Assembly (NCBI GenBank): GCA_031280435.1
Contig: JAITGS010000007.1
Span: 1 to 34,349, forward strand
From: Tannerellaceae bacterium
GTDB taxonomy: Bacteria; Bacteroidota; Bacteroidia; Bacteroidales; Tannerellaceae
Length of the DNA stretch: 34,349 bases
Direction of reading: 5' to 3'
Shown here: positions 1,456 to 29,828 of the stretch, piece after piece
How positions within the stretch are numbered: position 1 is the stretch's first letter
Layout of the letters: each line of letters opens with the position of its first letter
Position numbers and translations under genes: made by a program
Notes under the pieces: generated by a model
Seen by the model: only the letters and a program-made list of their open reading frames with translations
The model's database searches: none
What the model was told of the DNA's origin: nothing

Positions 1456-1850
1456 GTGGCATTTTCTTGCGCAGACCTTCGGAGAAAAATGCGACGTCGC
1501 ATTTTCTTGCGCAGAGCTTCGGACGAAAACAGCCATGCAGTATTTTCTTGCGCAGGCCTTCGGACGAAAAATGCCATGCGATATTTTCTTGCGCAGACCT
1601 TCGGACGAAAACAGCCATGCAGTATTTTCTTGCGCAGAGCTTCGGACGAAAAAAGCCATGCAGTATTTTCTTGCGCAGAGCTTCGGACGAAAAATGCCAT
1701 GCGGTAGCGGCTCGCGCAGGCCTTCGGAGAAAAATGCCATGCGGCATCGGCTTGCGAATGGGATCCGTAGAGAAAATGCGAGGTCGCAGCGGCTCCGGCG
1801 TAATCCGTAGAGAAAATGCGACGTCGCAGCGGCTTGCGGGGAATCCTTTT
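1456..1850. repeat. Tandem array 1, period 41 bp, about 9-10 units
   Basis: The word ATTTTCTTGCGCAG recurs at 1461, 1501, 1542, 1583, 1624 and 1665, spacing 40, 41, 41, 41, 41, and decayed units continue to about 1850. A unit reads roughly TTCTTGCGCAGAGCTTCGG, then ACGAAAA, then (A/C)(T/A)GCCATGC. The first junction is a perfect 20-bp palindrome at 1486-1505, and TGCGACGTCGCA returns near 1826-1837. The array separates two divergent genes (DUF6261-like and gyrA). It is open in several frames on both strands because the unit has few stop trinucleotides. Units are near-identical throughout with no unique spacers, so this is not CRISPR. Confidence 0.9.
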
Positions 1851-1907
1851 TAAATGCCTTTGCGATGCCTTTGGGGCGGGCAGGCAAAAGGATGCGAAAC
1901 TTTTTCA

Positions 1908-1915
1908 TACATTTG
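1908..1915 (+). promoter_or_regulatory. Possible -7 box of the gyrA promoter
   Basis: TACATTTG fits TAnnTTTG exactly and lies in the short AT-rich stretch between array 1 and gyrA. No convincing -33 TTG is found 19-21 bases upstream, so support is partial. Confidence 0.4.
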
Positions 1916-1958
1916 CGCAGCAAAAATTAAATGAGTATTAATTTAAATCTTTAAAAAC

Positions 1959-2039
1959 ATGGGATTACTCGGAACTGTCGGAGACCGGCTCTCCAAACTG
2001 CCTGCAAAACGGCCGGAGGCCCTTACCGCAAGGCAATGA
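1959..2039 (+). CDS. Candidate 26-residue leader ORF upstream of gyrA
   Basis: ATG at 1959 opens a frame of 26 codons (MGLLGTVGDRLSKLPAKRPE, then six more residues) ending in TGA at 2037-2039. It follows an A/T-rich leader (TTTAAATCTTTAAAAAC) of the kind that precedes real Bacteroidota genes, and starts about 45 bases after the possible -7 box at 1908. The stop is 40 bases before the gyrA ATG. No homologue is recognised. It could be a small protein, a leader peptide, or chance. Confidence 0.3.
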   Translation: MGLLGTVGDRLSKLPAKRPEALTARQ

Positions 2040-2079
2040 AAACGGTTCCCCTACTTTTTAGACTTATTCAGGATAATCA

Positions 2080-4725
2080 ATGATTGAACAGGACAGGATT
2101 ATAAAGATCAACATAGAAGAAGAAATGAAGTCGGCCTACATTGACTACTCAATGTCGGTAATCGTTTCGAGGGCGCTGCCCGACGTGAGGGACGGCTTCA
2201 AGCCGGTTCATCGCCGTATACTTTACGGGATGAACGAGCTCGGCAGTACGTCTGATAAGCCTTATAAGAAATCGGCCAGGATTGTGGGAGATGTGCTGGG
2301 AAAGTATCATCCTCACGGAGATACGGCGGTATATTTCTCTATGGTGAGGATGGCCCAGGTGTGGTCGCTGCGCTATCCGCTGGTCGACGGGCAGGGTAAC
2401 TTCGGCTCCGTCGACGGCGATATGCCTGCGGCGATGCGATACACCGAGGCCCGCCTCAGCAAGCTGGCCGAGGAGATGCTCAGGGATATTGACAAGGAAA
2501 CGGTGGACTTTCAGTTCAACTTTGACGATACGCTGCGCGAGCCGACGGTGCTCCCTACGCGCATCCCCAACCTCCTGATCAACGGCGCTTCGGGCATTGC
2601 GGTGGGAATGGCTACCAATATGCCGCCGCACAACATAGTGGAGACGCTCGACGGCTGCATTGCCTACATCGACAGCCGCGGAGAAATTGACGTGGCCGGA
2701 CTGATGCACTACGTGAAGGCCCCCGACTTCCCTACCGGAGCTACCATCTACGGCTATGCCGGCGTGAAGGAAGCTTTTGAAACCGGACGCGGGCGTATTA
2801 TCATGCGCGGCAAGGCCGAAATAGAGGTGGAAAACAATCATGAGAAGATAATAATCAGCGAGATTCCTTATTTAGTCAATAAGGCCGAACTGATAAAATA
2901 CATATCCGAGCTTGTGAACGAGAAGCGGCTCGAAGGCATCTCCTACGTGAACGACGAATCGGACCGTCAGGGCATGCGCATAGTGGTAGAAGTGAAGCGC
3001 GACGCCAATGCGGGCGTTGTTCTCAATAAGCTGTACAAGCTGACGGCGCTGCAATCCTCGTTCAGCGTCAACAATATCGCTTTGGTCAACGGGCGCCCGC
3101 GGCAGCTTAATCTGAAGGATTTGATAAAGGCTTTTGTGGATCACCGCAAGGAGGTGGTAACGCGCCGCACGCGCTACGAGCTGCGCAAGGCCGAAGAGCG
3201 GGCGCACATTCTGGAGGGCCTCATCATCGCTTCGGATCATATAGATGAGGTGATAGCCATCATTCGCGCGTCCAAAAGTCCGCAGGAGGCGATCGTGAAC
3301 CTTATAGAGCGCTTCTCGCTGAGCGAGATTCAGGCGCGCGCCATAGTTGAGATGCGCCTCCGCCAGCTCACCGGCCTTGAGCAGGACAAGCTCCGCGCCG
3401 AGTACGACGAGATAACGCAGCTCATTGCCCGGCTGAGGGAAATCCTTGACAATCCGGATCTGCTGATGAAAGTTATCAAAGACGAGCTGCTCGAAATAAA
3501 GGAAAAGTACGGCGACCGGCGGCGCACCGAAATAGTGTATGCATCCGAGGAGCTCAACCCGGAAGACTTCTATGCCGACGACGAGATGATTATCACCATC
3601 TCTCATAAGGGATACATAAAGCGCACGCCGCTGAGCGAATTTCATGCTCAGGCCCGCGGCGGCGTAGGAGCCAAAGGCTCGGAAACCCGCGAGGAAGACT
3701 TCGTGGAGTACATCTATCCCGCATCCATGCACGCCACGCTGCTCATCTTCACCGCCAAGGGCAAATGCTACTGGCTGAAGGTTTACGAAATACCGGAAGG
3801 AGCCAAGAACGCCAAGGGACGCGCCATACAGAACCTGCTCAACATTGAGCCGGACGACAAGGTCAACGCCTTCATCCGCGTGAAGCAGCTCCGCTCCGAC
3901 GTAGACTTTCTCAAAACACACTACCTGCTCTTCTGCACCCGACGGGGATACATCAAGAAAACCCTGCTGGAATCATACTCGCGGCCGAGGCAGAACGGCG
4001 TGAACGCAATCACCCTCCGCGACGACGACGGACTGATAGACGTGCGCCTCACCAACGGCAACAACGAAGTCATCATAGCCAACCGCAACGGACGCGCAAT
4101 ACGCTTCAACGAAAGCGCCGTGCGAGTGATGGGACGCACGGCCTCCGGAGTGAGAGGCATGACGCTCGACGAGGAATCGGCCGACGAAGTAGTAGGCATG
4201 ATATGCATAAAAAACAAGGCAGAGGAAAGCATACTGGTGGTATCCGAAAGAGGATACGGCAAGCGCTCGCACATAGACGACTACCGCATCACCAACCGGG
4301 GAGGCAAAGGCGTCAAAACCATCAACATCACCGATAAGACGGGTAAGCTCGTTGCCATCAAGAACGTAATAGAAGGCAACGACATCATGATAATCAACAA
4401 ATCGGGAATAACGATACGCATGAGCGTCCTCAACATAAGCCTCATCGGACGAACCGCGCAGGGCGTTCGGCTCATCAACCTCGAAAAGCGGCACGACGAA
4501 ATAGCATCCGTATGCAAAGTCCTCTCCGAAGACGACGAAAAGAATGCAGAAGAAAAGGCGCAGTCCGAAGCTCTCAACAGAAGCATCAATGCCGACCGCA
4601 ACGAAACGGAAGACGACTTCTACCGCTCAATAGAAGATATTGACGACGAGGACGAGGACGAGGACGAGGACATCGACAACGATACCGAAGCCGACGACAT
4701 TCAGGACGAAGAAGAACAAGAATAA
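2080..4725 (+). CDS. gyrA: DNA gyrase subunit A
   Basis: An 881-residue GyrA, the breakage-reunion subunit of DNA gyrase, which introduces negative supercoils with GyrB. The N-terminal domain starts in the typical way ([22 protein letters not shown], residues 23-39), the HPHGD motif is at 77-81, and the catalytic tyrosine is Tyr121 in [10 protein letters not shown]. The C-terminal beta-pinwheel starts near residue 500; the GyrA box is QARGGVG near residue 524, a relaxed form of Q(R/K)RGG(R/K)G. The extreme C-terminus is a run of Asp/Glu, as in many gyrases. In the quinolone-resistance region the residue matching E. coli Ser83 is Thr82 and the one matching Asp87 is Phe86. ParC/GrlA is excluded with fair confidence by the full-length pinwheel and GyrA-box region. 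A TPR gene follows after 39 bases and is probably cotranscribed. Confidence 0.97.
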
Positions 4726-4764
4726 TAACTCAAAACAAAGTATTAATATCAAAAATCATTTACA

Positions 4765-28689: not shown

Positions 28690-28722
28690 ATTTTCAAAAA
28701 AATTTGTTTGTGAAATCGGTCG

Positions 28723-28753
28723 CAAAAGTAGTCAAACATTCCTGAAGTTCAAG
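28723..28753 (-). promoter_or_regulatory. Promoter of the etfB-etfA-acyl-CoA dehydrogenase operon
   Basis: On the minus strand CTTG (28753-28750), 19 bases, TACTTTTG (28730-28723), an exact -7 match. It places the transcript start near 28716 and so supports the etfB ATG at 28689 rather than the longer frame. Confidence 0.7.
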
Positions 28754-28990
28754 AACCCGCATCACAGCCCGCTTGTAGATGCAGTTGAGGCGATGCGTCA
28801 GCCGGTCGCCTCCCTAAAAACCGGTCGGGAGCCATGCTAAAAGAGGCAGCGCCCGAAAAACGCCGCCTTTAGCTCCCGCCCCGAATATTTTTTACAGCCC
28901 GGGCAAAAGTAAGCCCCATTTCCAAATGGCAACGGCTTCCTCTAATTAGATGGAGCCATTGCCATGATGTAAATGGGCTGCGTAAATGTA

Positions 28991-29148
28991 GTTCGCTCGA
29001 ACAATAGGTCATTCCCGCGAAGGCGGGAATCTCCGATCTAAATACGGTTACGTTTGTATTTCTATCATATAAAAACACCGTACAATCGTCCCAACTATCG
29101 ATCGGAGATTCCCGCCTTCGCGGGAATGACCTGTCTTTCGAGCGCAAC
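28991..29148. repeat. REPIN-like/MITE-like palindromic element, copy B
   Basis: Facing copies of ATTCCCGCGAAGGCGGGAAT around a centre homologous to copy A (reverse orientation). The outer arms GTTCGCTCGAAC...AGGTC and GACCTGTCTTTCGAGCGCAAC are complementary over about 26 bases, but their sequence differs from the outer arms of copy A. Confidence 0.85.
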
Positions 29149-29277
29149 CTACTTTTTGTGCACGTTCATAAAATGTAAATGGCTTCCGATAAATCCCTAG
29201 CGATATTTACGGTCTGTAAATGGCTTCCGACAAATCGCTGGAGCCGTTTACAAATGGAAATGGCCTGCGTAAATGTA

Positions 29278-29476
29278 GTTCGCTCGAACAATAGGTCATT
29301 CCCGCGAAGGCGGGAATTCGAAGCAAGCTTTTAGCTTGCGAGAATCGACGCAGTCAATCTCCGATCGAAAAACGGTTACGTTTGTGTTTCTATCATATAA
29401 AAACACTGTACAATCGTCCCAACTATCGATCGGAGATTCCCGCCTTCGCGGGAATGACCTGTCTTTCGAGCGCAAC
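29278..29476. repeat. REPIN-like/MITE-like palindromic element, copy C, with 41-bp insertion
   Basis: Nearly identical to copy B including flanks (from the shared CTGCGTAAATGTAG to ATGTAAATGGCTTCCGA), so B and C are a direct duplication. It differs by an extra 41 bases at 29318-29358. Confidence 0.85.
29318..29358. repeat. 41-bp insertion with its own hairpin
   Basis: Present in copy C and absent at the matching point of copy B. It contains GCAAGC-TTTTA-GCTTGC (29323-29339) and is bordered by AAT on both sides, a possible 3-base target duplication. The length equals the period of the surrounding arrays. Confidence 0.7.
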
Positions 29477-29828
29477 CTGCTTTTTGTGCACGTTCATAAA
29501 ATGTAAATGGCTTCCGACAAATCGCTGGCGATATTTACGGTCTGTAAATGGCTCGCGACAAATCGCTGGTGATATTTACGGTCTGTAAATTCCTTCCGAC
29601 AAATCGCTGGAGCCATTGCCATGATGGAAATTCCTTCCGACAAATCGCTGGAGCCATTGCCATGATGGTAATCTGTTCCGACAAATCGCTGGAGCCATTG
29701 CCATGATGGAAATCTGTTCCGACAAATCGCTGGCGCCGTTGCCATGATGGAAATGGCTTCCGACAAATCGCTGGAGCCATTGCCATGATGGCAATCTGTT
29801 CCGACAAATCGCTGGAGCCGTTGCCATG

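What the first reader, a model, noticed from the sequence alone, without database searches (positions are those of the whole stretch)
1456..29828. Six unrelated intergenic tandem arrays share a 41-bp period (or half of it)
Arrays at 1456-1850, 8811-9291, 15505-15758, 24929-25066 and 28928-29828 have units of 39-41 bases, and the one at 20899-21350 has 21. The unit sequences differ between loci (arrays 2 and 5 are related), so descent from one repeat does not explain the shared period. All contain palindromes. Together they fill nearly every intergenic gap longer than about 200 bases. A fixed length with free sequence suggests a common generating mechanism, or a selected spacing of about four helical turns for a protein that binds along the DNA or a repeated RNA hairpin. 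I know of no described system of this kind; that is recall, not a search.
Basis: partly seen in the sequence, partly recalled or inferred. Interest (0 to 1): 0.85.

Follow-up and report, generated by a model that had tools for sequence, protein, structure and literature searches.

The report
Fixed-length palindromic repeat arrays between genes
A gut bacterium of the Tannerellaceae carries many short repeat arrays between its genes that nearly all repeat every 41 bases (or half that) although their sequences differ, a striking case of a puzzling kind of bacterial repeat already reported in other groups.

Summary
In 638 kb sampled from the 3.06-Mb assembly, 154 of 162 Tandem Repeats Finder rows have periods of 20-23, 39-42 or multiples; block-shuffled DNA gives none. 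The 103 arrays fall into about 70 sequence clusters. [quoted passage not shown] This is a dense 41-nt variant, also seen in G009, G010, G012 and Parabacteroides distasonis.

Added here: many units carry DNA-level palindromes, preserved through paired base changes. Arrays tend to lie between the upstream gene's end and the downstream promoter (promoter motif in 37 of 77 array-to-start segments, 3 of 49 stop-to-array segments). Beside the same genes a sister species can have arrays of similar length and unrelated sequence. One family has a conserved leader.

Best reading: spacer DNA whose length and dyad symmetry, not sequence, are maintained, perhaps by a protein assembling along DNA. A functionless product of replication slippage plus template switching is the main rival. 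RNA-hairpin and phased-bend readings are disfavoured. Function is unproven.

The parts
1461..1846 (.). Array 1 (41-bp unit, then 40-bp unit) in the gap between gene 357-1346 (-) and gyrA 2080-4725 (+)
   Evidence: a related array at G000:C123 is orthologous to G009:C88
1908..1915 (+). TACATTTG, a match to TAnnTTTG (recalled Bacteroidetes -7 promoter consensus), between array 1 and gyrA; the same motif stands beside the unrelated array upstream of gyrA in G009
   Evidence: flank 1890-1969 is 89% identical in G009
8811..9291 (+). Array 2, family 1 (subtype with CTCCAC...GTGGAG dyads); 41-bp units plus degenerate internal units
8811..8850 (+). Conserved family-1 leader (dyad CTCCACTGTGGA, then CTTCAACATTTCCGCCGGCTC) at the start of the array
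15505..15758 (.). Array 3; two dyads per 41-bp unit, axes stepping 20.5 bp between 15553 and 15676
20902..21349 (.). Array 4; 21-bp unit, 21.3 copies, dyad GTGCGCAC, divergent gap
24929..25066 (+). Array 5, family 1 (subtype TCAACA-TGTTGA) with leader at about 24929-24975; no array in the orthologous gap of G009
28928..29828 (.). Array 6; several 41-bp blocks, interrupted twice by copies of a dispersed element containing CATTCCCGCGAAGGCGGGAAT
29830..29866 (-). Hairpin (GAAAAAGCCCCGGGCGC...GCTTCCCGGGGC) read as the terminator of gene 29897-33931, next to array 6; a similar arrangement in G009:C109
   Evidence: sequence; by inspection, no separate test

Best explanation
These are noncoding 'constant-size' minisatellites in which unit length (20-23 bp, or about twice that, here 41) and DNA dyad symmetry are maintained while sequence is free. 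They mostly occupy the spacer between the end of one gene and the promoter of the next. SHOWN: length constancy over about 70 sequence clusters; enrichment of dyads and paired changes in them; position relative to promoter motifs; unrelated arrays of similar length beside the same genes in two species; one family at many sites with a conserved leader. INFERRED: that the spacers are untranscribed, and that length and symmetry are selected because a protein, or a self-assembling row of dimers, that reads spacing and dyad (or extruded hairpin) shape rather than base sequence binds along the array and organises or insulates the DNA between transcription units.
For: Length: the 91 arrays of 39-42 bp have mean unit 41.15 and SD 0.63; drift from one ancestor at the indel:substitution ratio measured within the arrays (0.121) would give SD 1.9 at 0.3 and 3.1 at 0.75 substitutions per site. 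Dyads: perfect stems of 6 or more with a 0-2 nt centre, 21 against 1.7 expected in 61 cluster representatives. Paired changes: with one strand counted per locus, family-1 pair 7-16 is A.T in 30 and C.G in 26 of 56 distinct units, none broken; pair 8-15 is A.T in 42, G.C in 6, broken in 8; Watson-Crick 0.868 over 8 pairs against a shuffle maximum of 0.819 and slid registers at most 0.471. In the corresponding gap of G009, 5 of 7 units have G.C at that pair, where 7 of 7 in G000 have A.T. All-array test (146 of 150 arrays): 31 of 50 double changes in stems are Watson-Crick against 394 of 988 in control columns, p=0.003; by haplotype 21 of 35 against 332 of 845, p=0.02. Position: TAnnTTTG in 37 of 77 array-to-start segments (shuffled 8.0; reversed strand 15) against 3 of 49 stop-to-array segments, p=4e-7. 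Beside the same gene, G000 and G009 units no more alike than shuffled ones, with lengths of 40-42, at three places: upstream of gyrA, beside gene 29897-33931, and G000:C49/G009:C32.
Against: No protein, binding or phenotype is known. Arrays come and go (gap 24891-25113 has none in G009) and about half of the called gaps over 200 bp have one. Only 11 of 17 sampled same-genus genomes gave a class array at score 100 or more, from stretches of 6-111 kb. A 20.5-bp dyad ladder is clear in two window arrays but weak on average. The 22-23 and 44-46 periods in relatives do not fit one helical spacing. Spacer upstream of promoters may simply be the only place where arrays are tolerated. Palindrome repair by template switching could mimic selection on dyads. 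Units in an array are related by duplication, so cell counts overstate independent events; the pair 7-16 split is mainly one between two subfamilies.
Confidence: 0.43

Rival explanations
1. Mutational product without function: replication slippage and template switching at palindromes create arrays with a preferred step of about 20 or 41 nt and also make quasi-palindromes perfect; purifying selection removes them from genes, promoters and UTRs.
For: Position between terminator and promoter is where insertions should cost least; presence/absence difference between species; sequence turnover beside the same genes; template-switch repair of quasi-palindromes is known from the literature (recalled).
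Against: I recall no slippage process with so sharp a step independent of sequence; 18 sampled same-family genomes outside the genus gave 0 class arrays at score 100 or more in 309 kb (a few weaker 21-22-bp rows at score 80), so a general replication property does not explain it.
Confidence: 0.33
2. Common descent: all arrays derive from one 41-bp (or 20.5-bp) ancestral repeat that has lost sequence similarity while the period persisted.
For: Clusters of up to 12 exist and 36 of 103 arrays chain at a lenient threshold; short words are shared over unrelated clusters (CGGAAA 15 of 70 clusters against 2.8 in intergenic controls; CGCAAG 15 against 3.1).
Against: Observed unit-length SD of 0.63 is smaller than neutral drift predicts; shared words could be convergent. 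The test is approximate, because the indel rate comes from the arrays themselves and TRF prefers regular arrays.
Confidence: 0.12
3. Repeated RNA hairpins or small RNAs transcribed from the arrays (a proposal of Subirana and Messeguer for Bacillus).
For: Unit dimers fold better than shuffled ones (mean z -1.75 over 91 units); PMC8625621 (abstract and passages seen) reports transcription of B. coagulans satellites.
Against: Promoter motifs lie downstream of the arrays; no strand asymmetry: of 42 tandem-gap arrays 23 fold better on the sense and 18 on the antisense strand, and single stem changes give 82 G.T against 80 A.C; dyads with 0-2 nt centres are the most enriched; no Rfam match in the window. 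Transcription itself was not tested.
Confidence: 0.07
4. REP/BIME-like elements mobilised by a RAYT transposase.
For: Short extragenic palindromes in many copies; a family with a conserved terminus.
Against: No Y1_Tnp (PF01797) match in the genome, while the same search rings in 5 of 14 control genomes (assembly 83% complete); no common unit sequence over clusters.
Confidence: 0.03

Closest known systems
Constant-size noncoding tandem repeats ('satellites') of bacteria, Subirana and Messeguer 2020-2021 (PMC8161180, parts 1-3 of 5 and passages read; J Bacteriol 2020 e00229-20 not held, its 22/44-or-52-nt wording recalled)
   Different: Dominant size here 41 (with 21) rather than 20-21 or 52; Tannerellaceae; 158 arrays per Mb, 108 with at least 4 copies, against at most 89 per Mb (23 in bacteria) in Table 1 of PMC6749651 (other program and cut-offs; the larger 2020 survey was not seen); paired changes and promoter-upstream position were not in the parts I read
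REP / BIME elements
   Same: Extragenic palindromes, many copies
   Different: No RAYT found, no common unit sequence, strict tandem period
CRISPR arrays
   Same: Regular repeats with partial dyads; one family has a leader
   Different: Whole unit repeats, no unique spacers; many unrelated arrays; cas genes not searched
MITE-like dispersed elements
   Same: Family 1 has a conserved left end at eleven places, most with different flanks
   Different: Body is a tandem array of variable length; target-site duplications were not tested

Membership tests
Constant-size bacterial satellites (Subirana and Messeguer) | Most arrays in a genome share one repeat size | tested here: met
   154 of 162 TRF rows in 20-23, 39-42 or multiples
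Constant-size bacterial satellites (Subirana and Messeguer) | Unit sequences vary between arrays of a genome | tested here: met
   103 arrays in 70 clusters at 0.55 similarity
Constant-size bacterial satellites (Subirana and Messeguer) | Noncoding | tested here: met
   75 of 101 arrays in called gaps, 2 inside called genes, 24 at contig or stretch edges and so unplaced
Constant-size bacterial satellites (Subirana and Messeguer) | Size is 20-23 or 52 nt | tested here: inconclusive
   12 of 103 arrays are 21 or 23, 91 are 39-42, about twice 20.5; 44 as a double of 22 is recalled from the unread 2020 paper
Constant-size bacterial satellites (Subirana and Messeguer) | Short words shared by all or most arrays of a species | tested here: inconclusive
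   CGGAAA and CGCAAG are each in 15 of 70 clusters against about 3 in controls: enriched, but in a minority
REP/BIME | Associated RAYT (Y1 transposase) | tested here: not met
   No PF01797 match in the 83%-complete genome
REP/BIME | Common palindrome with a tagged tetranucleotide | not tested
   no search for GTAG/CGTC tags was made
CRISPR | Repeats separated by unique spacers | tested here: not met
   Units repeat over their whole length
Structured RNA repeats | Strand-asymmetric stems (G.U tolerated on one strand) | tested here: not met
   82 G.T against 80 A.C on the sense strand

The most novel reading that the evidence does not exclude
A genome-wide, sequence-agnostic DNA scaffold: in a lineage of Tannerellaceae, spacers upstream of promoters are held to a fixed geometry (dyads at 41 bp or half of it) that a lineage-specific protein reads by shape and spacing. 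Arrays can then be replaced by unrelated sequence of the same length without loss of function, insulating or organising neighbouring transcription units.
Probability: 0.22. Interest if true: 0.88.

Novelty: new variant of a known kind. Interest (0 to 1): 0.62.

Why it matters
Why some bacteria fill spacers with tandem repeats of one exact length but arbitrary sequence is an open question stated in print in 2021 (PMC8161180). This genome adds facts that narrow it: DNA-level dyads kept by paired changes, a place upstream of promoter motifs, unrelated sequence of similar length beside the same genes, and carriage by P. distasonis, a named species in which deletion and chromatin experiments should be possible.

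Tried and rejected
Phased A-tract curvature: A-tract autocorrelation in 56 units of 41 bp is below the control at 10 and 20 and above it at 13-15, so helical bending is not supported. General 20.5-bp dyad ladder: clear in two window arrays but the mean second-dyad profile peaks only weakly at 20.5 (z 1.6) and more at 13.5 (z 3.2) over 56 own-genome arrays; 13 relatives' arrays give z 1.4 at 20.5 and -2.6 at 13.5. Transcription terminators: arrays are, if anything, rarer in convergent gaps (6 of 21 against 57 of 109, p=0.06). Tetraloop-rich RNA hairpins: CGCAAG loops on stems of 5 or more occur only 3 times. RAYT: none. Rfam: none in the window. Nine answered paper searches listed no description of 41-bp arrays in Tannerellaceae or Parabacteroides; one search showed 12 of 1,842 papers, and most subscription papers are not held.

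Mended on re-check: the family-1 pair counts (69 units) included some units read on both strands; one search repeats them with one strand per locus (56 units), and the result stands. My working reading that all same-genus genomes show the periods was wrong; one search gives 11 of 17.

Limits: gene calls are a crude codon-score ORF picker that missed at least one gene of the window; the sample is the window plus 40 stretches, chosen by contig number, except C76 and C88, which were placed over hits; one of six P. distasonis stretches was placed at known arrays; family-1 units were gathered by similarity to one typed consensus (146 candidates).
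Full report
What was checked. The window is contig 10 of a 3.06-Mb, 143-contig assembly, 83% complete.

Genome-wide period. TRF (score 80 or more) on the window plus 40 stretches of the same genome (638,053 bases) gives 162 rows in 100 array regions. 154 rows have periods of 20-23, 39-42 or multiples (63, 81-84, 120-126); the other 8 are 18, 27, 69, 75, 152 (two), 163 and 354. Block-shuffled sequence gives none. 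Non-overlapping arrays of 20-23 and 39-43: 41 (56), 42 (25), 21 (10), 40 (9), 23 (2), 39 (1). At score 100 or more the density is 158 per Mb, or 108 per Mb with at least 4 copies. 24 of 101 arrays sit at the edge of a contig or stretch; several of these are contig ends, so arrays also seem to break this assembly.

Sequence. The 103 units cluster into 70 groups at similarity 0.55 (largest 12 and 7; 56 singletons) and 42 at a lenient 0.45, where 36 arrays chain. A few short words recur over clusters more than in other intergenic DNA. Unit length has SD 0.63 among the 91 arrays of 39 bp or more; drift at the within-array ratio of 0.121 indel events per substitution (152 to 1254) predicts SD 1.9-4.1 for 0.3-1.5 substitutions per site. 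This argues for a constraint on length, with two cautions: TRF favours regular arrays, and the ratio was measured in the arrays.

Dyads. In 90 units of 40-42 bp, 41 have a stem of 6 or more pairs against 8.4 expected. In 61 cluster representatives, stems of 6 or more with a 0-2 nt centre number 21 against 1.7 expected, and those with 3-8 nt loops 13 against 3.2. Stem axes within a unit lie 20-21 bp apart 15 times against 0.8 expected and 10 bp apart 7 times against 0.4, but also 12-14 apart 13 times against 1.3, and the average profile around the best dyad shows no strong second dyad at 20.5. Double changes within arrays (146 of 150 arrays, own genome and relatives) are Watson-Crick in 31 of 50 cells in stems against 394 of 988 in controls (p=0.003; haplotypes 21 of 35 against 332 of 845, p=0.02). 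Family 1 (arrays 2 and 5, and about a dozen other places) shows it best: with one strand per locus, pair 7-16 is A.T in 30 and C.G in 26 of 56 distinct units; pair 8-15 is A.T in 42, G.C in 6 and broken in 8. In the corresponding gap of G009, 5 of 7 units have G.C at the pair that is A.T in 7 of 7 units of G000 (the two G000 contigs C65 and C120 end inside this array, so their adjacency is inferred from G009). Changes shared through duplication count more than once. No strand asymmetry is seen.

Place. Arrays lie in gaps over 200 bp (63 of 130; 0 of 191 shorter). Read in the direction of the gene, TAnnTTTG (a recalled Bacteroidetes promoter consensus) occurs in 37 of 77 array-to-start segments (shuffled 8.0, reverse strand 15) and 3 of 49 stop-to-array segments (shuffled 4.2, reverse strand 4). 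Terminator-like hairpins occur in 10 of 49 stop-to-array segments (reverse strand 4) and 4 of 77 array-to-start segments (reverse strand 7). Forward against reverse for terminators is not significant (p=0.15), and 12 of 150 array readings (75 arrays, both strands) themselves score as terminator-like. So arrays seem mostly to lie outside transcripts, though transcription was not measured.

Same genes, other species. Units of G000 and G009 are no more alike than shuffled ones at three places: upstream of gyrA (41 and 41 bp), where the flank next to gyrA, with TACATTTG, is conserved; beside gene 29897-33931 (41 and 42); and beside an orthologous block at G000:C49 and G009:C32 (41 and 40). Beside gene 27817-28725, G012 has a 41-bp unit only weakly like the window's (0.27; 1.6% of shuffles reach it). 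In contrast, the array at G000:C123 and G009:C88 is the same one (similarity 0.82), and gap 24891-25113 has no array in G009. Contig ends prevent seeing both flanking genes in several of these.

Mobility. Family-1 arrays start with a conserved leader (a dyad, then a stretch like CTTCAACATTTCCG) at eleven places. Flanks differ, except that L283 and L286 share theirs and L288 and L300 largely do, leaving nine distinct flanks. I infer that this family spreads as leader plus array. No RAYT was found.

Distribution. At score 100 or more, sampled relatives of the same genus give 44 class arrays in 594 kb (74 per Mb) with periods of 21-23, 41-46 and 63; 11 of 17 genomes have one, 24 of the 44 come from G009 and G012, and G007 gave 1 in 97 kb. 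18 same-family genomes outside the genus give 0 in 309 kb, and 22 genomes of other families of the order 0 in 378 kb (a few weaker 21-22-bp rows appear at score 80). P. distasonis An897 has 41-bp arrays: 3 class arrays in 120 kb (41, 41, 45), one stretch having been placed at known arrays.

Known precedent. [quoted passage not shown] PMC8625621 (abstract and passages seen) reports transcription in B. coagulans. The founding 2020 paper is not held. This finding belongs to that kind, as a 41-nt variant.

Verdict. Real, striking, known in kind, unexplained in function. I favour selection on length and dyad geometry by a DNA-binding assembly in spacers (0.43) over a functionless replication product (0.33).

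Noticed in passing
window 1-200, 28994-29144, 29270-29470: Dispersed element containing CATTCCCGCGAAGGCGGGAAT; matches on some 20 or more contigs of G009 at about 75-98% identity, and it interrupts array 6 twice.
   Followed up: partly
window 9300-9780: Cluster of other dispersed palindromic repeats (GTAGAGACGCGATTAATCGCGTCTCTAC; GGGTCGAATATTTTCGACCC) right after array 2; a similar right flank follows the family-1 arrays of L285 and L290.
   Followed up: partly
L110:19-1307: A 354-bp tandem repeat (3.6 copies), outside the period class.
   Followed up: no
L116:1322-2266: 75/152-bp tandem repeat outside the period class.
   Followed up: no
L128:6805-7071: 39-bp repeat inside a called gene, probably a coding 13-residue repeat and so unrelated to the class although counted in it.
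   Followed up: no
G000:C65 and G000:C120: These two contigs are probably neighbours broken at a family-1 array, judged from G009:C5.
   Followed up: partly
window 6529-7656: Match to OS_HP2 family (seleno)protein below its curated cut-off (75 of 100 bits) and to choice-of-anchor D, next to meaB.
   Followed up: no
own-genome 41-bp units (e.g. window 1461-1742): A-tract autocorrelation peaks near 13-15 bp, a third of the unit, and a second dyad is favoured at 13.5; the dyad part is not seen in 13 relatives' arrays; unexplained.
   Followed up: no
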